Shown: one piece after another, positions 11,836 to 28,079 of the stretch
How positions within the stretch are numbered: position 1 is the first letter of the stretch
How the letters are laid out: every line of letters starts with the position of its first letter
Origin: an uncultured bacterium
GTDB lineage: Bacteria; Verrucomicrobiota; Kiritimatiellia; RFP12; UBA1067
Length of the DNA stretch: 40,199 nucleotides
Direction: 5' to 3'
Assembly: GCA_902788415.1 (NCBI GenBank)
Contig: CADAKF010000008.1
Span: 1 to 40,199 of the forward strand
Translations under genes and position numbers: made by a program
Notes under the pieces: generated by a model
Seen by the model: only the letters and a program-made list of their open reading frames with translations
Database searches by the model: none
Told to the model about the DNA's origin: nothing

Positions 11836-11973
11836 TTTCTCCTTTGTCGTTCGGAACCCCTTGGCGTCCCGGCCACTCGGCCGAACCCGCCTTTCCTCCC
11901 GACGGTGCACATTATGCACCATTCCGGCCTCCTTGTCCGTTGTAGTTACAACGGAATTGCAAATCTTCAGTTT
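11836..11973. repeat. 138-bp direct repeat, copy A (hcp promoter and leader)
   Basis: This segment matches 16617-16754 at all but three of 138 positions. It holds the whole hcp promoter, the dyad and the untranslated leader up to just before the ribosome binding site. Its upstream edge overlaps the last 7 bp of the RAYT-type transposase gene. The leader includes a GTTCGG...CCGAAC stem conserved in both copies. Confidence 0.9.
11911..11954 (-). promoter_or_regulatory. hcp promoter with GTTG-N6-CAAC operator
   Basis: On the minus strand a CATAAT -10 box lies 22 bp from a 14-bp dyad GTTG-N6-CAAC, here within the perfect 18-bp inverted repeat CCGTTGTAACTACAACGG. With a start 7 bp past the -10, the dyad is centred at about -41.5, the position of class II Crp/Fnr activation. 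No good -35 box is present, as expected for an activator-dependent promoter. Confidence 0.75.
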
Positions 11974-12974
11974 CCGCCAATCCAGATGGAGCCTAACCTT
12001 ATCAGCCCCTCGGGCCGCCAGTAGACCGCCAGCCCTTCGCCAGCCGTCGCGATTTTAACGATTTCTTCGTTATACTCAAGGCAAGCCGCCCGACCAAACT
12101 CAACCTCTTCGTTACCTTTAGCTAGCTCTAAATAGCGATTTTCGAGAAAAGCTTCAACATACACGCTTTCAGGCTTGTAGTTGAGCGGCATCATACTTGG
12201 CAATATTCGAATAAATTTCGCTTTTTTATTGCGACAACAGAGGTCTCTCACCAGCTTCTCGCCAGGGCTGATGAAGCCGCTAAGTATCGTAAATCCCCTC
12301 TCAATTGCGCTTTCCATTCGTTTTACGACTTCTTCAAGGTGTTTCCCTTTAACCTGCCGCGAAATACGAAGCGAGACAATCTTATTCTCTTCGTCTAATA
12401 GCGCGACGGTACCAACGCCTTTCCAATAATCGGCTCGGTCAAGCCGCGGCGAATCGAGTGGTTCAACAATGCGAAGCGCCTCTGGGCGATTCTTCATCAA
12501 CTCCCATTTCGCGACGTTGTAGGCGATATAACGCTCGGTTGAGGCAATTTTCTGCTCGTTTGGCAGCAAATGGTCGTGATAGCCCTGCCGCCAGCCGAAC
12601 TTGGCAGTTAGGCCAAACGCTGTTTGGCCATCGCGACTTACTTTAGAAATATGATTCTTCAGCCGCCTCACCGCGTTACCCAAAAACTTCAGTGGCTCGT
12701 TAAGCCCTGGTACGATATGGCAGTTGAAATGAAGATGATCTGGCATCACCACGCGACCGAAAAGCGACAGGCCCGGGTTGTAAAGTGGCAACGCCTCAAG
12801 CGACCTCAGCGCCTCTTCTCCAAGCGGCGTCAGTTTCAGCTTGCCGTCGACAATCGACCCAAACGCTGGTTGCCGCGGTTCAGTCACCAGCGTAATGAAA
12901 AGCGACGCCCCCCGGCTGTAATCCCAGCCCATAAATCGCCGATAGCGCTTTATCTCCTTGTGGGGCGAGGTCAT
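11967..12974 (-). CDS. RAYT/Y1-type HUH transposase with extra C-terminal domain
   Basis: REP-associated tyrosine transposases are single-strand endonucleases of the IS200/IS605 (Y1) superfamily. Residues 20-165 show the core: FITLVTEPRQPAFGSI, the HUH pair in MPDHLHF (His80, His82), and the helix ERYIAYNVAKWEL with the likely catalytic Tyr149. The protein is about 335 residues, roughly twice the core. The remainder (about 185-335) contains ERGFTILSGFISPGEKLVRD followed by a beta-strand-like KFIRILP, which resembles a Rossmann-type DprA/LOG-like fold; this is a pattern impression, not a proven match. No recognisable insertion-sequence ends were found, so it may be a domesticated single-copy gene. 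A TTG at 12981 is an alternative start. Confidence 0.8.
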   Translation of the reverse strand: MTSPHKEIKRYRRFMGWDYSRGASLFITLVTEPRQPAFGSIVDGKLKLTPLGEEALRSLEALPLYNPGLSLFGRVVMPDHLHFNCHIVPGLNEPLKFLGNAVRRLKNHISKVSRDGQTAFGLTAKFGWRQGYHDHLLPNEQKIASTERYIAYNVAKWELMKNRPEALRIVEPLDSPRLDRADYWKGVGTVALLDEENKIVSLRISRQVKGKHLEEVVKRMESAIERGFTILSGFISPGEKLVRDLCCRNKKAKFIRILPSMMPLNYKPESVYVEAFLENRYLELAKGNEEVEFGRAACLEYNEEIVKIATAGEGLAVYWRPEGLIRLGSIWIGGN

Positions 12975-12975
12975 C

Positions 12976-13335
12976 TCAATCAAACGGTCTCGCGCTTTTT
13001 TCTCCTGGGTGTCGCTTCAAATCTCGCGCCGCCAACCCGAAGCACGTTATAAGCATCAACGGACACCAGACCGCAAGAGTTCCTATCAGAAGCCCACAAA
13101 TCATTTCTCGCGCAGTTTGATCATAAGAGGCGAAGCAGTCACGGAAGATCCATTTCGCTCCCCATTGACAAACAAACAACGAGCCAATGAGCAGCGCCAA
13201 CCAAACCCGCGCAGCTGTTTTGGCGAAATTCAAAGTCACCCCAACAGCCTTGTACTTATCGTGGCGATAGACCCAAACGCGCGGGTCGTTTCGATTGTAA
13301 TAGACGCCGAACTTCAACAAACTCTCAGGCTTCAT
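12976..13335 (-). CDS. DUF5808-like membrane protein
   Basis: The 119-residue product begins with KFGVYYNRNDPRVWVYRHD and VGVTLNFAKTAARVW, resembling the short DUF5808 motif (YYNPxDPRxxVPKR...GWTLNF). Two hydrophobic segments follow (WLALLIGSLFVC and ICGLLIGTLAVWCPLMLI), so it is probably an inner-membrane protein. The chosen ATG is the second of two adjacent ATGs because GGAGG lies 5 bp before it. The stop abuts the transposase start. Function is unknown. Confidence 0.6.
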   Translation of the reverse strand: MKPESLLKFGVYYNRNDPRVWVYRHDKYKAVGVTLNFAKTAARVWLALLIGSLFVCQWGAKWIFRDCFASYDQTAREMICGLLIGTLAVWCPLMLITCFGLAARDLKRHPGEKSARPFD

Positions 13336-13428
13336 CATCACCTCCCGAACCGTATCACACCAAACCAACCGCCTCTCTAACCGCTCCAACCCAACCAGTT
13401 CAATCCAGATGGTCGAGCTGTGCTCGAC

Positions 13429-13642
13429 CTATCCTTCGTACACCCCTTCGATCTCGACGACGTAGACATCGTGGAGCGAGCCGCCAGGCTGGTTGCCGTA
13501 CCACTTCTCGAGAATCGACTTGTCGATGAAGTTGGCAGCGGGTAAGGCGTACCTGCTCGAAGGTCATCGCACCGCTGTCAAGCGCCACGCCGAGCGCAGC
13601 AACCCCTTCTACAAACTCCTTGCGATCGATCTTTTGCATCAT
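13429..13642 (-). pseudogene. Small gene with an apparent frameshift
   Basis: The first frame reads MMQKIDRKEFVEGVAALGVA and onward to about FEQVRLT, then turns into arginine-rich nonsense. In a neighbouring frame the same DNA continues as NFIDKSILEKWYGNQPGG and ends DVYVVEIEGVYEG before a stop at 13429. The joined product would be about 70 residues. The family was not recognised. A TATACT box lies 9 bp before the ATG. A small GGTCGAGC/GCTCGACC hairpin follows the stop. Confidence 0.4.
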
Positions 13643-21595: not shown

Positions 21596-22450
21596 TCACC
21601 GAACTATTTGCATAGTTCGATCCTTTCCTTTATCGCTGTCACGAAGCCTTGTAAGATCTGGAATCCGGCGGCACCATACATCGTAATCTTTCTCGTATTC
21701 AATCCTTCTCCTCTTGGACAACTCCAGAAACGCCTTAGTTGAATCGACACCAACAAACTTACGCCCAATCAGATTTGCCGCAATTCCTGTAGTTGAACTA
21801 CCCGCGAACGGGTCAAGCACAAGCGCATTTGCCTCCGTACTTGCAAGTAGTGCTCGAACAACCAATGATAGCGGCTTTTGAGTCGGATGCTTCCCACACG
21901 ATTTCTCCCAGCGACCGATAGCCGGCAGTCGCCAGACATCCGTCATCTGCCGATCCCCTGCCAATCGGCGCATAAGATCGTAGTTGTAGTAATGCGGAAC
22001 TCTCTTTTGCTTTCGAGCCCAAAGCAATATCTCCGTGGAATGCGTAAAGAAACGGCAACTCAAATTTGGCGGCGGATTCGTTTTCTGCCAAATGACTGAA
22101 TTGAGAATTCTAAAATCCAACTCCGATAGGACAGTTGCAATAGAAAAAATGTTATGGAACGTACCACAAACCCAAATCGTGCCGGATTCCGAAAGCCGCT
22201 CCCGGCAGGATTTTATCCATTGAAAGTTAAATTCCGTATCCGCTTTCAAGCCACGAGACTTATCCCATGCTCCTTTGTTCACAGACACCTGCTTGCCCGC
22301 TTGGACCGAAAAACCGTCATTCGACAGAAAGTATGGTGGATCGGCAAAAACCACGTCAAACAAGCAAGACGACAATCTCGGGACAACCTCCCGACAATCT
22401 CCCTTGTAAAGACTAAAGTCCCCCTTCGTCGTCCTGTAATACGGTCTCAT
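21596..22450 (-). CDS. dpnA: DpnA-type adenine methyltransferase (second GATC methylase)
   Basis: This is a beta-class N6-adenine methyltransferase: the catalytic DPPY (residues 37-40) precedes the SAM-binding LDPFAGSSTTG (212-222), and GKHPTQKPLSLVVRAL lies before it. Its 284 residues and its place in a DpnII operon match DpnA, which in pneumococcus methylates GATC also on single strands and protects incoming DNA. It starts 6 bp after the endonuclease stop and has no clear ribosome binding site; a GATC site lies in this short gap, so coupling to the upstream gene is likely. Confidence 0.92.
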   Translation of the reverse strand: MRPYYRTTKGDFSLYKGDCREVVPRLSSCLFDVVFADPPYFLSNDGFSVQAGKQVSVNKGAWDKSRGLKADTEFNFQWIKSCRERLSESGTIWVCGTFHNIFSIATVLSELDFRILNSVIWQKTNPPPNLSCRFFTHSTEILLWARKQKRVPHYYNYDLMRRLAGDRQMTDVWRLPAIGRWEKSCGKHPTQKPLSLVVRALLASTEANALVLDPFAGSSTTGIAANLIGRKFVGVDSTKAFLELSKRRRIEYEKDYDVWCRRIPDLTRLRDSDKGKDRTMQIVR

Positions 22451-22456
22451 GAGAGA

Positions 22457-23302
22457 TCACACAAAAAGTGTGGCTGCAATTCCGCCTTCAAGTTCTTTAA
22501 TGTTGTAGAGGGTAGGAAGAACTTCAAATGTTTCACGTAGATTTTGCCTCGCGCTTCTCCACCCAGCACCATCCGTAAACCAAACGAACTTGAATCCCGC
22601 AATATCACGTGCCTCAATTGCCAGCATCTTATAACTACGTGCCGTCTCGTTCAACTTCGACCCGCTGCTTCCGTAGAAATTCGTTTCAATCGCATAAACG
22701 CATGTTGATGTATGCACAACAAAATCAAAGCGCTTTTCCGTTCGTCCAGTGTTTGTCAACGACGACAAGTCAATACCCCAACGGTAACGAACCTCGCTGG
22801 CATACATTTCTTTGTAGTATTCCAATCGTGCCTTCTGAAGATACGACTCGACAAGATCTTCCATCAAATGCCCGCCACGATTCTTGCGCCCGTTTGAATC
22901 CAAGCCGGTTTCAACCCCCAAAACATAATCATAGAGATTATTGACTATATGACGCGACATCAAATCAAACAACCCCGTCTTTCGCATGAAGAGACAGTAT
23001 TCATCCGCACTATGCCGTATACGATCAAAACGATAAAGCCCGCCCGTTTCATTATCGACAGCGTATATTTCATGTTCCCGAACAGCAATCAAAATCGGAA
23101 CAACGGATATTATCGACGGATAGCGTGTCAGCAATGCCTTAAATTCCAATTCAACATCTTGACGTCCAATAAGCGAATTTAACAGATGCAACTCCGCCCT
23201 GTAACGTTCTGCGTTTGCCACGACCTTGTCGAAATCAATGTAATAGTCATAACTTGAAATGCTGTCACGGAATTGCGCCAGCCAAGTGTCGAAATCTCTC
23301 AT
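22457..23302 (-). CDS. dpnB: Type II restriction endonuclease, DpnII/MboI family (GATC)
   Basis: The 281-residue enzyme cleaves unmethylated GATC. The DpnII-family core is unmistakable: GRKNRGGHLMEDLVESYL, then KRFDFVV and CVYAIETNFYGSSGSKLNE, with Asp193 and Glu206 of the nuclease fold. AAGGAG, overlapping the methylase stop, is 7 bp before the ATG. The gene lies between the two methylases; in pneumococcus the order is methylase, methylase, endonuclease, so the order differs here. No frameshift or truncation is seen. Confidence 0.94.
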   Translation of the reverse strand: MRDFDTWLAQFRDSISSYDYYIDFDKVVANAERYRAELHLLNSLIGRQDVELEFKALLTRYPSIISVVPILIAVREHEIYAVDNETGGLYRFDRIRHSADEYCLFMRKTGLFDLMSRHIVNNLYDYVLGVETGLDSNGRKNRGGHLMEDLVESYLQKARLEYYKEMYASEVRYRWGIDLSSLTNTGRTEKRFDFVVHTSTCVYAIETNFYGSSGSKLNETARSYKMLAIEARDIAGFKFVWFTDGAGWRSARQNLRETFEVLPTLYNIKELEGGIAATLFV

Positions 23303-23306
23303 ACAA

Positions 23307-24197
23307 CTACTCCTTATAATTTCGAATGGCCAGCTCTGAGATCTTACCGCGGCCGTCGGACTTTGAATTGATCATCCGACTCGCCGAGACACGATGAATG
23401 TCAAACCCTTTGAATATCTCCTCGAAAAACATATCGTTCGGGTTAGCATTATGCGGATCCGAGTTGGACAGCAACCACTGATGTCCGTCCTTATCTAACA
23501 GCCGACAAAAATCGGCCAGCCGCTTCTGCTGTTCGTCACCAAAACCTTCTTTTGAATAAGCCGTAAAACTCGCCGTCTGCGTCAAAGGTCGGTATGGTGG
23601 ATCGAAGTAATAGAAGGCACGCCCCTTTACATGCTTCCCGACTTCTTCAAAATCACCATTCAGAATCTCAACCTTTTGAAGAAGTTTACTATCTGCGCGA
23701 ATCGTCTCCTCATCACAAATCAGGGGCTTCACCGCCTTCCCGAACGGGACATTGTAAAATCCTTTTGAATTCACACGATAAAGCCCATTAAAACACGTTC
23801 GATTCAAAAAGATGAACAGTGCCGCCGTTTCAACATCCCCTGCGTTCCTTGTGTTGTAGCGTTCTCGTTTCGCCAGAAAAAACTGCTTGCGTCCATCTTC
23901 GGTCAGGCATGCGTAAAACGCTTTCTGCATTTTAGACAGTTCATGGATCAATTCATCGGGACAATCGCGAATCGCCTTATAGGTTTTGACTAGATCGCCA
24001 TTCAAGTCATTCACGACTGCATGCGTTATATTCGTGTAATTCGACAACATGTAGAAGAGCATTGCTCCACCGCCAACGAACGGCTCGACATAGACGAGGC
24101 CCTGCCGATCTTTAAGGCCATTGGGCAACAACGCCGATAGTTGCTCCAGCAACTGCCCCTTGCCACCGGCCCACTTAATAAACGGCTTCGCCTGCAC
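23307..24197 (-). CDS. dpnM: DpnM/Dam-type GATC adenine methyltransferase
   Basis: This alpha-class D12 methylase protects GATC by N6-adenine methylation. The 296-residue form begins with the SAM-binding PFIKWAGGKGQLLEQL, then YVEPFVGGGAMLFYML, and has the catalytic DPPYRPL. The GTG start has GGAAGGTG about 6 bp upstream. However, the frame stays open to an ATG at 24302 that has an even better ribosome binding site (GGAGGG). The extra 35 residues form a lipoprotein-like signal (RSLAHILCFVGITLASC), which makes no sense for a DNA methylase. The GTG product is taken as the functional one. Confidence 0.9.
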   Translation of the reverse strand: MQAKPFIKWAGGKGQLLEQLSALLPNGLKDRQGLVYVEPFVGGGAMLFYMLSNYTNITHAVVNDLNGDLVKTYKAIRDCPDELIHELSKMQKAFYACLTEDGRKQFFLAKRERYNTRNAGDVETAALFIFLNRTCFNGLYRVNSKGFYNVPFGKAVKPLICDEETIRADSKLLQKVEILNGDFEEVGKHVKGRAFYYFDPPYRPLTQTASFTAYSKEGFGDEQQKRLADFCRLLDKDGHQWLLSNSDPHNANPNDMFFEEIFKGFDIHRVSASRMINSKSDGRGKISELAIRNYKE

Positions 24198-24376
24198 CTT
24201 CTCACCTTCCGCACACAAACAGGAGGCAAGTGTTATTCCGACAAAGCAAAGGATATGTGCCAAGCTTCGCAAGAAGCGACACGAATTACCTCTGTCTTTC
24301 ATCACCATTCCCTCCAGACGCGAATCGCCGCCGGGGAATTCCGATACAGAAAAAGGCGCGCCCCTTCCCCTGTACT

Positions 24377-24507
24377 CAGCGGTAGCCCTTGCAGAGGCCT
24401 GTCAGAATACAGGAAGAAGGAACGCGCCTTGTGCATTACTGCACATCGGCGCGTTCCCGCAACCATGCCGTTCTGACAGTGAAAAACCTGCAAGTATTTC
24501 CGCTGAA
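24377..24507 (-). repeat. Nested inverted repeat, about 131 bp
   Basis: Five arm pairs share almost one centre (about 24440): TCAGCGG/CCGCTGA, CTTGCAG/CTGCAAG, CTGTCAGAA/TTCTGACAG, GGAACGCGCC/GGCGCGTTCC and TGTGCA/TGCACA with a TTAC loop. All five are perfect and are separated by short unpaired bulges. An alternative pairing competes: GGCGCG and CCTGTA at 24356-24375 can pair with TACAGG and CGCGCC at 24409-24429. In the operon leader this could act as an attenuator or a structured RNA; as DNA it could be a REPIN-like or miniature element. Confidence 0.7.
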
Positions 24508-24669
24508 CGTCGTGTTTGCGTAAACGCAAAAATCAACTGATGCGGTCGGGGGTGGAGCGGGGACGGAGTCGCTTGCGGCTTGTATGCGGCAGGCGTTCCG
24601 CCTGTCCCGTCAGTTCCCAACCTATGGTCCCTACTCACCCGCCCGAAGAATGGGTTTCAGGATGGGAAT

Positions 24670-24675
24670 AGTATA
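24670..24675 (-). promoter_or_regulatory. Extended -10 of the restriction-modification operon
   Basis: TGG-TATACT on the minus strand, with only a weak -35 (CCGACA region), would give a leader of about 460 nt before the methylase GTG, containing the long hairpin. Confidence 0.5.
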
Positions 24676-24739
24676 CCAAAAGTTGTCGCGGGGTGTCGGA
24701 CACGCTGCGCCAATTTTTTGCGCGTGTCGTTTCGCTCAG

Positions 24740-25306
24740 CTACTTCGCCCGACCGTAGGGCGTGGCCGAAGTTTCGCCGGGCATCGCGCCAAAGCCAATC
24801 TTGCGGCGAGGAGTGTCGGGTACAGAAAGCTGCTTGACCAGATAATTCATGCCGCCTTTGATCTGCTTGATGTTGCCTTCCGCGACATCCATGCGACGCT
24901 TCAGCATGGCAATCTCCCGCACATCCTCAACACGCTTCAGGAGCATTTCCCGCAACACACGCGTCGCCCATTGGCGGAAACGAGTGCCCTCAAAAGACTT
25001 CACGCGGTAGCCGACTGAAATGACGACATCAAGATTATAAAGCGCAACCGGTCTGCCACCAACTTCAGAGGTTTTATGCAAAATTTGCATAAAACCCTCT
25101 TTCGGCAATTCTCCTTCCTTGAACACATTACTGATATGTCTCGCGATGACCGACTGATCTCTTCCGAACAATCGACACATTTGGTCTTGGGTCAGCCAGA
25201 CGGTCTCACCGTCGGTCTTGACTTCCATCTTGACGTTCTCACTCTGCTTGTATACTACTATCCGCTTCTGCTCGCAGATTCGATTGACTCTCATTTCATC
25301 TTTCAT
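24740..25306 (-). CDS. RhuM family protein
   Basis: The 188-residue product has the RhuM pattern: VKTDGETVWLTQDQMCRLFG, RDQSVIARHISNVFKEGEL, YNLDVVISVGYRVKS and GTRFRQWATRVLREM. The N-terminal part is a DNA-binding-like helix-turn-helix; the family is frequent on genomic islands beside restriction or toxin genes, with unclear function. The C-terminus is probably a short coiled coil (VEDVREIAMLKRRMDVAEGN). The ATG is 22 bp after the helicase stop; the longer frame runs back through the helicase gene and is not real. Confidence 0.85.
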   Translation of the reverse strand: MKDEMRVNRICEQKRIVVYKQSENVKMEVKTDGETVWLTQDQMCRLFGRDQSVIARHISNVFKEGELPKEGFMQILHKTSEVGGRPVALYNLDVVISVGYRVKSFEGTRFRQWATRVLREMLLKRVEDVREIAMLKRRMDVAEGNIKQIKGGMNYLVKQLSVPDTPRRKIGFGAMPGETSATPYGRAK

Positions 25307-25328
25307 AACAGCCCTTTCTTTCGTCTTA

Positions 25329-28079
25329 TCAGATCTTCGTCGTTCGCCTTGCCCTCGCGAAGAGAATCGCACGCAACCGCCTTTCGTATTCGTCCGGCAA
25401 ATCCCTTTTCTCGAGAATCGCACGGATCGTCTCCTCGTGCTCATCGTCGGCAACGAACTGCAACCGGATAAAATCGGTCGACGCACCTCGAACGACGCCG
25501 TTCCAGCGCGTAATTCCCTGCGAGTCAAGGCAGGTCGCCGCATCAAGGCGGAACGTTCCCGAGCGATGATAGACAAAATCGCCAATCGCCGCACGAAGTT
25601 CCAATTGTCTTTCAGGCGCACCCAGATGTCCTGACTTGAAGTACTCCAGGGCGGCACGATGGTCGCGCTTTTTCCGAGAGGTGTGCGCCGCCTGTCGGAC
25701 ACATTCGATTGTCTCACTGTCGTAGACGCAGGCATTTTGCAAACAGCCGATCGCCGTCTCGGCATAATCGCCTTTGGCAAAAGCGAGCCACCGTCCCCTC
25801 GCTTCGTCTCGACTCGGATGATGCCGAAGCGTCTTGAGCGCCATGCGCACGACCGGACCTACCTTTGAAGCGAGCGCCGACTCGACAACTTCCATTGGAC
25901 ATCGCCCTTCGGCCTTCGCCTCGGCCAGCACCTCCCATTGATTCAACCAATCTGACGACAGGTCTTCTCCCCGCGCACGACGAAGATAGTAACCCGAATA
26001 GCCAAAGCGAAAGCATTCGCCCAATCCCCGCCAAATGCCACCCATCCCGCATCCCAGCAGCGTCAGATGCCGTTTCGCTCGGCTCATCGCCACATATAAA
26101 AGGCGTTGCGCTTCATCCCGATCCGCACCAGGCCCCCCTTCGGACATCTCCCCCGCGCCAGGAATGACCACGGCATCAAACTGACGCCCCTTCGCCTTGT
26201 GGACGGTCGAGATGACGATCTTCTCGTCTCCGGCCAGCAAATCGGCTTCCTTCAACTTGGACAGCTTCTGTCCGTCTTCGGAAAGGACTTGTGCAAACGG
26301 CCTTTCCTCCTTCACATAGATCACGTCGACATAGCGGAAGAAAATCTCCATGCGCCGCAAGGCATACAGCCGAGCCTCATCCGCCGTCAACTCGCGATGG
26401 AGTTCCTCTTCCATCGCCCTTTTCTCCGGAACTAACTCGCGGATGGAATACCGCAGGACCTTGCCGAGCGCCGCTTCGGCAAAAACGGAAAACAACACGC
26501 GAAAATCAACCCTGCCGCCGAGGCGAGGCAAAACCGCATCAACAGCGGGCTTGAGCCGTCTGCGCAGCGAAGACAGCACAGGACGATTCCACCACGCCCA
26601 CTGACGCGCGCGATTCCACGGATGCGGAACGCTCGGTACGGGATCCTTCAACCCGAAAAGCGACATCGGATTCCATCCCGACGCAAACATGCCGCGGACA
26701 AAATACCGCGCCGCCGAACTGCGGTAGACGCCGTCCGCAAACCGCCGCACGAGCGACGCCCAGGCCGTCCGCGGCGGCTTTTCGGCAAAGATCGAGACGA
26801 AGGCCAGGAAGTCGCGCATCGGCGGATAGGAGAACAGATCAAGGCCCGAGACCTTGACCGTCCGATAGCCGAGTCTGCGCACAAGCCTTTCGCATGCATC
26901 GGCCTCACGGTTCGTGCGGACGAGAATCGCCACGTTTTCGGCGACCTCGTCCCCCAGCAGATGACGGACGCGCTCCAAGACGGCTTTCGGTCCGTCCGCA
27001 GGCGACAACGTCACTTCACCGTTCGCACGGGCGACGTCGGAAGGTGCCGGCAGGAACTCCCAGTTAGAACGCAACACGTCCAGCGAATATCGCATCAGGA
27101 TCTCCAACAGCAGCGGCGCTGCGCGGAAGTTCGTCCTGAAGTAATGACGCTCGCAATCGGCGACAGCCGTCGCAAACGAACTCGCCGAAGCTCCGAGAAA
27201 AGAGAAGATCGACTGTTCGACGTCGCCGAAGTAAACGCTGACTGCACGGGACGACGTCAACTCCTTGACGATCCGCCACTGAAGCGGATTCAAGTCCTGC
27301 ACTTCGTCGATCTGGATCCAGTCAAAGCGTCGATCGTCTTCAATCGGATTCTGCGTCAGATACAGGAACGTCTCGTTGATGAGATCGTCGAAGTCGACCG
27401 ACCGAAACTTGCGCTTAAGTCCCGAATAGGCCAGCTCAAGCGCCGCGACAATTCCACGGTCAAGAAAGACGGACATCGTCATCGGCACCTGCCGGAGATA
27501 GCACGACGGAATGCCCAGTTTCCACTGATGCGCGATCAGCACCGCGGAAAGGATGTCCGGGTACGGACTTCTGTCGTCCTTCTCGCAATCCGCAAAGTAC
27601 TCCTCGACAATCTCCGAAAGCGCAATACACATCGGTTCGCAAATACCCTTGACCGTCGCCACGACGCTGACACCATGCGTTTTCTTCAAATCGGCAGTTC
27701 TCCCCTCTCGCAACTCCTCGCGCAACACATCTGTCACCTCTCGGATGAAATCAAGCTGCTGCGACTCGTCCAGCACATACTTGCCAGGATGGATCCGCCG
27801 AACCGACAGCAAGAACCGATGGCAGATGTGATGGAGATTGCCGACATCGGGGAGCGCGCAGTCGGGTCCCGCCGCGCCGGAGACCCGATCGCGCATCTCG
27901 AACGCCGCGCGGTTCGTGAACGTCGCACACAGCATCCGCTTTGGATCGACGCCCGACGAAAGCGCACGGAGAATCCGCTGCGACAGCATCTCCGTCTTCC
28001 CCGATCCCGGCGGAGCCAGCACGAGGTGGCGCCCCGCGACGAGATCAACGACGGCGAGCTGTTCGTCCGTAAGCGTCAT
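25329..28079 (-). CDS. UvrD/PcrA-like superfamily 1 DNA helicase
   Basis: The 916-residue protein has the SF1A motifs in order: Walker A APPGSGKT (22-29), motif Ia ATFTNRAAFEMRDRV, motif II QIDEVQDLNPLQW, motif III YFGDVEQSIFSFLGA, motif IV FRTNFRAAPLLLE, motif V ISTVHKAKGRQFDAVVIPGA and motif VI LLYVAMSRAKRHL. The 1B/2B insertions are large. About 200 residues after motif VI form a C-terminal region not recognised (GDYAETAIGCLQNACVYDSE and KSGHLGAPERQLELRAAIGD), perhaps helical repeats. It translocates 3'-5' on ssDNA and probably acts in repair or in defence, given the neighbouring RhuM and restriction genes. It starts 10 bp after the small secreted protein gene. Confidence 0.92.
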   Translation of the reverse strand: MTLTDEQLAVVDLVAGRHLVLAPPGSGKTEMLSQRILRALSSGVDPKRMLCATFTNRAAFEMRDRVSGAAGPDCALPDVGNLHHICHRFLLSVRRIHPGKYVLDESQQLDFIREVTDVLREELREGRTADLKKTHGVSVVATVKGICEPMCIALSEIVEEYFADCEKDDRSPYPDILSAVLIAHQWKLGIPSCYLRQVPMTMSVFLDRGIVAALELAYSGLKRKFRSVDFDDLINETFLYLTQNPIEDDRRFDWIQIDEVQDLNPLQWRIVKELTSSRAVSVYFGDVEQSIFSFLGASASSFATAVADCERHYFRTNFRAAPLLLEILMRYSLDVLRSNWEFLPAPSDVARANGEVTLSPADGPKAVLERVRHLLGDEVAENVAILVRTNREADACERLVRRLGYRTVKVSGLDLFSYPPMRDFLAFVSIFAEKPPRTAWASLVRRFADGVYRSSAARYFVRGMFASGWNPMSLFGLKDPVPSVPHPWNRARQWAWWNRPVLSSLRRRLKPAVDAVLPRLGGRVDFRVLFSVFAEAALGKVLRYSIRELVPEKRAMEEELHRELTADEARLYALRRMEIFFRYVDVIYVKEERPFAQVLSEDGQKLSKLKEADLLAGDEKIVISTVHKAKGRQFDAVVIPGAGEMSEGGPGADRDEAQRLLYVAMSRAKRHLTLLGCGMGGIWRGLGECFRFGYSGYYLRRARGEDLSSDWLNQWEVLAEAKAEGRCPMEVVESALASKVGPVVRMALKTLRHHPSRDEARGRWLAFAKGDYAETAIGCLQNACVYDSETIECVRQAAHTSRKKRDHRAALEYFKSGHLGAPERQLELRAAIGDFVYHRSGTFRLDAATCLDSQGITRWNGVVRGASTDFIRLQFVADDEHEETIRAILEKRDLPDEYERRLRAILFARARRTTKI

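What the first reader, a model, noticed from the sequence alone, without database searches (positions are those of the whole stretch)
24356..24507. Large nested hairpin with competing alternative pairings in the restriction-modification leader
Five perfect arm pairs around one centre form a stem of about 130 bp with bulges. An upstream segment (24356-24375) can instead pair with part of the left arm (24409-24429). Mutually exclusive structures are the mark of attenuators and riboswitches. The element lies between the operon's extended -10 and the methylase start. Restriction-modification operons often need delayed or controlled expression, usually by C proteins; none is present here. It could also be a REPIN-like element moved by the RAYT-type transposase.
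Basis: partly seen in the sequence, partly recalled or inferred. Interest (0 to 1): 0.6.

Follow-up and report, generated by a model that had tools for sequence, protein, structure and literature searches.

The report
RNA switch before restriction-modification operons
A stretch of RNA at the start of this bacterium's DNA-defence operon can fold in two mutually exclusive ways, one of which looks like a transcription stop signal; the same RNA recurs across the bacterial phylum in front of many unrelated defence and cell-surface genes, so it looks like an undescribed genetic switch.

Summary
The hairpin is real, and its competing pairing is a conserved terminator. The element (24344-24533, minus strand) lies between an extended -10 and a DpnII-type operon (D12 methylase, DpnII endonuclease, second methylase). 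A covariance model found it in 84 of 115 genomes of the family and 160 of 346 of the class, and in other classes of the phylum. The own genome has five copies, all before restriction-modification or related helicase genes. Downstream genes of 124 family copies include EcoRI-type (38), D12 (11), Eco57I, HsdM, type III and C5 methylases; most of the rest are secreted or envelope proteins.

A sequence-only alignment of 110 copies supports two exclusive folds. The readthrough-type fold has hypervariable but compensating stems and an inferred loop-loop kissing helix (95% of pairs kept; covariation 0.357 against 0.149 shuffled). The terminator fold is stem plus U-tract (18 doubly changed pairs against 8.5 shuffled). 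Nearly all nucleotides conserved but unpaired in the first fold pair in the second. Rfam 15 has no match, and two reviews of restriction-modification regulation mention no such leader.

Most likely a transcription-attenuation leader RNA, apparently undescribed. Its trigger is unknown and no transcript data exist. A REPIN-type mobile element is not supported.

The parts
24670..24678 (-). extended -10 promoter TGGTATACT of the operon; predicted start near 24663
   Evidence: sequence; a TGnTAyAmT motif lies within 260 nt upstream of 75 of 128 homologous copies, 1.0 expected from shuffles
24344..24533 (-). conserved two-state leader RNA (whole element)
   Evidence: covariance models R1 and R2; homologues across the phylum
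24515..24530 (-). P1 hairpin TTTGCG...CGCAAA
   Evidence: 98.7% of cells paired over 110 copies, with compensatory changes
24505..24527 (-). T1 5' strand: pairs with 24451-24473 in the terminator state
   Evidence: T1 helices 96-99% paired, 8 pairs with changes on both sides
24451..24473 (-). T1 3' strand; overlaps the 5' arms of P5/P6 of the readthrough state
24500..24507 (-). P2 5' strand (partner 24375-24382); hypervariable, fully compensating
   Evidence: 98% paired; all four Watson-Crick pairs at similar frequency at three positions
24375..24382 (-). P2 3' strand
24481..24500 (-). hairpin P3g, whose loop CTTGCAG (24488-24494) pairs with the loop of P3h; the P3g stem is weak in this copy
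   Evidence: loop-loop helix 97.7% paired, all 6 pairs with compensatory changes; in register in 37 of 39 copies outside the family by inspection
24383..24400 (-). hairpin P3h AGGCCT[CTGCAA]GGGCTA; loop strand CTGCAAG 24388-24394
   Evidence: 96.2% paired in the family; across the phylum one pair flips CG 24 / GC 20 / UA 3
24471..24479 (-). P4 5' strand CTGTCAGAA (partner 24399-24407)
24399..24407 (-). P4 3' strand TTCTGACAG
24419..24457 (-). P6 and the apical hairpin (GGAACGCGCC...GGCGCGTTCC)
   Evidence: 98.9% paired over 110 copies
24405..24428 (-). terminator stem, 5' strand (also the 3' arms of P4-P6)
   Evidence: T2 helices 93-94% paired
24355..24377 (-). terminator stem, 3' strand GAGTACAGGGGAAGGGGCGCGCC
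   Evidence: nucleotides that are conserved but unpaired in state A pair here
24350..24354 (-). U-tract TTTTT directly after the terminator stem
   Evidence: longest T run in the last 24 nt is 4 or more in 105 of 110 copies
23307..24308 (-). D12-class adenine methylase (DpnM-like) with an in-frame hydrophobic N-terminus
   Evidence: PF02086 E 1.9e-59
22457..23302 (-). DpnII restriction endonuclease
   Evidence: PF04556 E 4e-104
21596..22450 (-). second DNA methylase (N6_N4_Mtase, DpnA-like position)
   Evidence: PF01555 E 5.4e-48

Best explanation
The element is a cis-acting leader RNA that gates transcription into the downstream operon by attenuation. RNA polymerase starts near 24663 (minus strand) and transcribes the leader before the methylase. 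The RNA has two exclusive states. In state T, an early helix (24505-24527 with 24451-24473) takes up the 5' arm of the big hairpin, leaving its 3' arm (24405-24428) free to pair with 24355-24377; that stem plus UUUUU is an intrinsic terminator. In state A, P2-P6 form the big hairpin, held by a P3 pairing that can be drawn as two small hairpins with kissing loops; the terminator strand is then unpaired or in a small hairpin (P7), and polymerase reads on into the operon. The same module stands before unrelated restriction-modification, helicase and envelope genes, so it most likely gives accessory loci a common control signal. Shown by sequence: the element, both structures, promoter association, gene context. 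Inferred: that state T terminates in vivo, that the two states are regulated, and the kissing geometry. Not known: the signal. Rough guess: small molecule 0.35, protein or modified polymerase 0.35, unregulated partial attenuation 0.2, other 0.1.
For: Covariation on a sequence-only alignment of 110 copies. State A: 95.4% of cells paired, 617 doubly changed cells against 172 +- 13 shuffled, covariation score 0.357 against 0.149, at most 0.071 when slid. State T: 18 pairs changed on both sides against 8.5 +- 1.8, 0 of 500 shuffles. Phylum-wide alignment (fitted to the model): 0.621 against 0.222. Nearly all nucleotides that are conserved yet unpaired in A are those that pair in T. T run of 4 or more in 105 of 110 copies. 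Extended -10 upstream in 75 of 128 copies against 1.0 expected. ORF of 150 aa or more within 200 nt on the same strand in 113 of 120, against 45% at random points. Downstream genes in this genome: D12 MTase, EcoRI-type MTase, N6_N4 (type III-like) MTase, ResIII, SNF2/ResIII helicase. Of 124 family copies, at least 66 precede a DNA methylase by Pfam. 39 of 59 EcoRI-type MTase loci have a strong leader and 4 more a weak one. In 217 kb searched with R2, all 47 matches are at the expected places.
Against: No transcript, termination or probing data. Nested state A is more stable than T in 103 of 110 copies (median 12.8 kcal/mol), so termination must rely on co-transcriptional folding or a factor. 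State T covaries less than A, partly because its strands are doubly constrained. 'Downstream first gene' is the longest nearby ORF, assigned automatically. Outside the family some copies precede lipoproteins or unknown genes, so the regulon is not only defence.
Confidence: 0.8

Rival explanations
1. A classical metabolite riboswitch: P2/P3g/P4/P3h with kissing loops form an aptamer for a small molecule (for example a second messenger), which decides between readthrough and termination.
For: A multi-helix junction with loop-loop pairing, an expression platform with a terminator, and many copies per genome before diverse genes, as seen for second-messenger riboswitches (general knowledge).
Against: Phylum-wide, very few unpaired nucleotides are conserved, and in the family the conserved unpaired ones are explained by state T, so no obvious ligand pocket. 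The downstream genes share no metabolic pathway. No Rfam match.
Confidence: 0.3
2. A processive-antitermination or specialised elongation-factor element (working like EAR, JUMPstart/ops with RfaH, or LoaP sites) that modifies RNA polymerase for long, horizontally acquired operons; the terminator is the first barrier.
For: The gene set (surface, glycan, restriction-modification) resembles that of known antitermination systems; a second, divergent NusG-like protein is common in these genomes.
Against: Presence of the second NusG does not follow presence of the RNA: some genomes with leaders show only one NusG (e.g. G061, 100% complete, 4 leaders), and some without leaders have two (G075, G145, G147, G080). 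The RNA has a terminator/antiterminator design of its own.
Confidence: 0.2
3. A dispersed mobile or repetitive element (REPIN-like, moved by a RAYT) that happens to lie upstream of restriction-modification genes.
For: Several copies per genome; an ORF with a RAYT-like HxH motif (MPDHLHF) at 11967-12983 (sequence).
Against: Copies are strongly orientation- and position-specific relative to genes, many carry a promoter, they keep a terminator U-tract, and paralogues differ throughout while keeping pairing. blastn with the window element finds only itself in its own genome. The RAYT-like ORF has no Pfam match at E 0.001. No match in phages or plasmids, none of the exact pattern in viral contigs.
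Confidence: 0.03
4. A DNA-level site (integron-attC-like folded single strand or recombination site) used to exchange cassettes behind a common promoter; the covarying stems serve recombination.
For: Structured, hypervariable palindromic stems; the same upstream cassette before unrelated genes; in some loci the methylase is fused in frame behind a signal-peptide-like stretch.
Against: Two exclusive structures with a strand-specific U-tract and an upstream promoter are an RNA signature. No arrays of cassettes were seen, and attC core sites were not noticed by eye. No recombinase was searched for.
Confidence: 0.07

Closest known systems
Transcription attenuators of the trp type (strands 1:2 and 3:4 against 2:3)
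   Same: Four-strand exchange between terminator and antiterminator in an operon leader.
   Different: No conserved leader peptide was noticed (not tested systematically); strands 2:3 sit inside a larger branched structure with loop-loop pairing; controls unrelated genes, not a biosynthetic operon.
Orphan riboswitch candidates with terminator platforms
   Same: Covarying branched domain followed by an alternative terminator; several copies per genome.
   Different: Few conserved unpaired nucleotides; defence and envelope regulon; no Rfam 15 match at the thresholds used.
Known restriction-modification control: C proteins, methylase autorepression, antisense RNAs (EcoRI, Eco29kI)
   Same: Controls expression of restriction-modification genes.
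   Different: Acts in cis by leader RNA structure. Neither 'riboswitch' nor a leader attenuator is reported in the reviews PMC3874152 and PMC12707154.
Processive antitermination elements (EAR, ops/RfaH, LoaP sites)
   Same: Similar kinds of target genes.
   Different: No link to NusG paralogues found; own terminator; different structure (general knowledge).

Membership tests
Transcription attenuator (terminator/antiterminator leader) | Two mutually exclusive conserved structures, one a stem followed by a U-tract, in a leader | tested here: met
Transcription attenuator (terminator/antiterminator leader) | Transcribed from a promoter upstream, same strand as the regulated gene | tested here: met
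   by sequence only: extended -10 in 75 of 128 copies; ORF just downstream on the same strand in 113 of 120
Transcription attenuator (terminator/antiterminator leader) | Measured premature termination that changes with a signal | not testable with these tools
   no transcript data available
Riboswitch | Covarying aptamer-like domain plus expression platform | tested here: met
   terminator platform
Riboswitch | Conserved unpaired ligand-binding nucleotides | tested here: inconclusive
   few conserved unpaired positions across the phylum; those in the family are explained by the alternative state
Riboswitch | Binds a ligand | not testable with these tools
   needs probing with ligands
Any described Rfam family | Match at or above the gathering score | tested here: not met
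   window and 12 other loci, no relevant match
REPIN / REP element with RAYT | Near-identical short copies dispersed without fixed relation to gene starts | tested here: not met
NusG-paralogue-dependent antitermination | Specialised NusG paralogue present where the element is present | tested here: inconclusive
   presence does not track the leader, but MAGs are incomplete and paralogues diverge
Integron attC site | Cassette array with integrase and attC core sites | not tested
   no array noticed; integrase not searched

The most novel reading that the evidence does not exclude
A phylum-wide, undescribed RNA switch of Verrucomicrobiota/Kiritimatiellota gives restriction-modification and other defence operons, together with phage-exposed surface genes, a shared signal-responsive transcription gate, so that anti-phage defence and envelope display are turned on together by one RNA-sensed cue.
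Probability: 0.35. Interest if true: 0.88.

Novelty: new variant of a known kind. Interest (0 to 1): 0.74.

Why it matters
Control of restriction-modification genes is known through C proteins, methylase autorepression and antisense RNA; the reviews consulted report no structured leader that attenuates them. Here one RNA architecture precedes many unrelated restriction-modification types, including five such loci in one genome, and recurs across a phylum with very little genetics. It makes a direct question testable: what cue do these bacteria sense with RNA to switch defence and surface genes? It also gives covariance models, structures and copies for probing, and a way to find co-regulated defence loci.

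Tried and rejected
The repeat finder with default settings missed the hairpin because no single arm reaches 12 bp. Rfam at gathering and at permissive E-values: only chance microRNA-type hits. blastn of the leader in the own genome found one copy; the covariance models found three, then five, so DNA similarity is the wrong test. The RNAalifold consensus of seven sequences chose the terminator state, which showed that both states must be tested. NusG-paralogue dependence: no tracking. Phage and plasmid collections and viral contigs: no match. Literature on structured RNA discovery (PMC11109978, PMC8632094, PMC2864571) has no matching motif by taxon or gene terms; the 2017 paper with 224 candidates is not held. 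A sequence-only alignment of the divergent outside copies was not used for counting; a model-fitted one was, which leans towards the structure.

Full report
What was checked. The finding describes a nested hairpin at 24356-24507 with a competing pairing. Both are present. On the minus strand, the strand of the methylase at 24308-23307, the hairpin arms are P2, P3, P4 and P6 plus an apical stem. The competing arm 24355-24377 is followed at once by UUUUU, so on that strand it reads as an intrinsic terminator. The stem is about 45-50 bp over a span of 132 nt, not 130 bp. Folding energy is far below shuffles (z = -6.4 and -7.0).

Homologues. blastn against 145 relatives gave partial matches in several genomes. 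Locally aligned, five genomes hold the whole element, the copies standing before different DNA methylase genes. A covariance model (R1) then found the element in 84 of 115 genomes of the family, 160 of 346 of the class and 78 of 388 drawn from the phylum. A second model (R2) found five copies in the window's own genome and matches in further classes. Named records with a strict pattern are all gut or rumen MAGs labelled Kiritimatiellae, Verrucomicrobia, Lentisphaerae or unnamed. No match appears in Rfam 15, in phage or plasmid records or, for the exact pattern, in viral contigs.

Two structures, both conserved. A sequence-only alignment of 110 distinct copies (A5) was scored against two hand-named structures. 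State A (P1, P2, P3g, P4, P5, P6, P3h, P7 and a loop-loop helix between P3g and P3h): 95.4% of cells paired, 617 doubly changed cells against 172 shuffled, covariation score 0.357 against 0.149, at most 0.071 when slid. P2 uses all four Watson-Crick pairs almost equally at three positions, 96-98% paired. State T (5' strand with the 5' arm of the hairpin; 3' arm with the terminator strand): 95.3% paired, 18 pairs changed on both sides against 8.5 +- 1.8, none of 500 shuffles as high. The nucleotides conserved above 90% but unpaired in state A are almost exactly those that pair in state T, which independently supports the alternative. Across the phylum (A8, fitted to R2 and so leaning to it) state A scores 0.621 against 0.222, with P3h flipping CG/GC. 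In 39 copies outside the family the two P3 loops are complementary over 6-9 bases, in register in 37 by inspection; single copies are mostly not significant by shuffling, the strength lies in the recurrence. P3 may be a kissing interaction between two hairpins or may replace them; the sequences do not decide. RNAalifold on the first seven copies had already chosen state T.

Transcription context. A TGnTAyAmT motif lies upstream of 75 of 128 copies against 1.0 expected, mostly 60-170 nt before the element; in the window it is at 24670-24678. A T run of four or more ends 105 of 110 copies. An ORF of at least 150 aa begins within 200 nt on the same strand in 113 of 120 family copies, median 46 nt (45% at random points). 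Nested state A is more stable than T in 103 of 110 copies (median 12.8 kcal/mol). The 5' T1 helix can form before the 3' arms are made, so the outcome is plausibly decided during transcription; this is inference.

What it controls. First genes after 124 family copies: EcoRI-type MTase 38, D12 MTase 11, Eco57I 8, N6_Mtase 7, N6_N4 MTase 7, ResIII 5, Mrr_cat_2 3, UvrD 3, C5 MTase 2, SacI endonuclease 2; also BspA-type LRR 9, LRR_8 8 and others (some families overlap). At least 66 of 124 precede a DNA methylase. A DUF6079 gene (PglY-like, name from memory), acyltransferases and a glycosyltransferase also occur. In the own genome: D12 MTase with DpnII (window), EcoRI-type MTase, N6_N4 MTase, ResIII and an SNF2/ResIII helicase. 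Outside the family: ResIII/Mrr helicases, N6_N4 MTases, SNF2, glycosyltransferases, secreted proteins. Conversely, 39 of 59 EcoRI-type MTase loci in the family have a strong leader and 4 a weak one (comparison of coordinates by eye; in at least two of the rest the contig is cut close upstream).

Mechanism and rivals. The best-supported account is a cis-acting attenuator that gates transcription of accessory operons. That it terminates and is regulated is inferred. A metabolite riboswitch is possible, but no conserved unpaired pocket is visible and the genes share no pathway. Processive antitermination is possible, but a second NusG does not track the RNA. A REPIN-type element is disfavoured by orientation, promoters and divergence. 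A DNA recombination site is not excluded but has no direct support.

Novelty. Two reviews of restriction-modification regulation contain neither 'riboswitch' nor a leader attenuator (PMC3874152; PMC12707154). Three RNA-discovery papers show no matching motif by taxon or gene terms, but a key 2017 survey was not available, so a previous description cannot be fully excluded. Filed as a new variant of a known kind: attenuator-like in logic, new in architecture and regulon.

Noticed in passing
window 24308-24210 (-); L050, L053, L059, L065, L072, L078, L098, L100, L040, L148, L150: Many methylases behind the leader have an in-frame hydrophobic, signal-peptide-like N-terminal stretch. Among 41 EcoRI-type cases, 11 have a hydrophobic segment (mean hydropathy 2.16 or more) in the methylase frame; of the 29 with a long enough gap, 10 reach 2.2 in frame and none in the other two frames. 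The window's own D12 methylase begins with such a stretch.
   Followed up: partly
family genomes, e.g. G067:C274:8762-9001, G085:C57:12072-12275: A second, divergent NusG-like protein (about 45-50 bits) beside canonical NusG in most genomes of the family.
   Followed up: partly
window 11967-12983 (-): ORF with a RAYT-like HxH motif (MPDHLHF) that has no Pfam match at E 0.001.
   Followed up: no
window 24740-25780 (-): RhuM-family protein (partial match, PF13310 E 1.8e-13) directly upstream of the restriction-modification operon.
   Followed up: no
G017:C15:26777-26956 (-) and 27405-27584 (+) (L098, L110): Two leader copies back to back about 450 nt apart, one before an acyltransferase, the other before an EcoRI-type methylase fragment.
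   Followed up: no
L226 and L227 (G221:C43:448-626 and 13270-13448): Two identical leaders, with identical starts of the downstream secreted protein, 12.8 kb apart in one contig: a recent duplication of a surface-protein locus.
   Followed up: no
L253, L254, L245, L243: Weaker, shortened relatives of the leader before EcoRI-type methylases (38-59 bits with R2 for L253, L254 and L243): a possible subfamily.
   Followed up: partly
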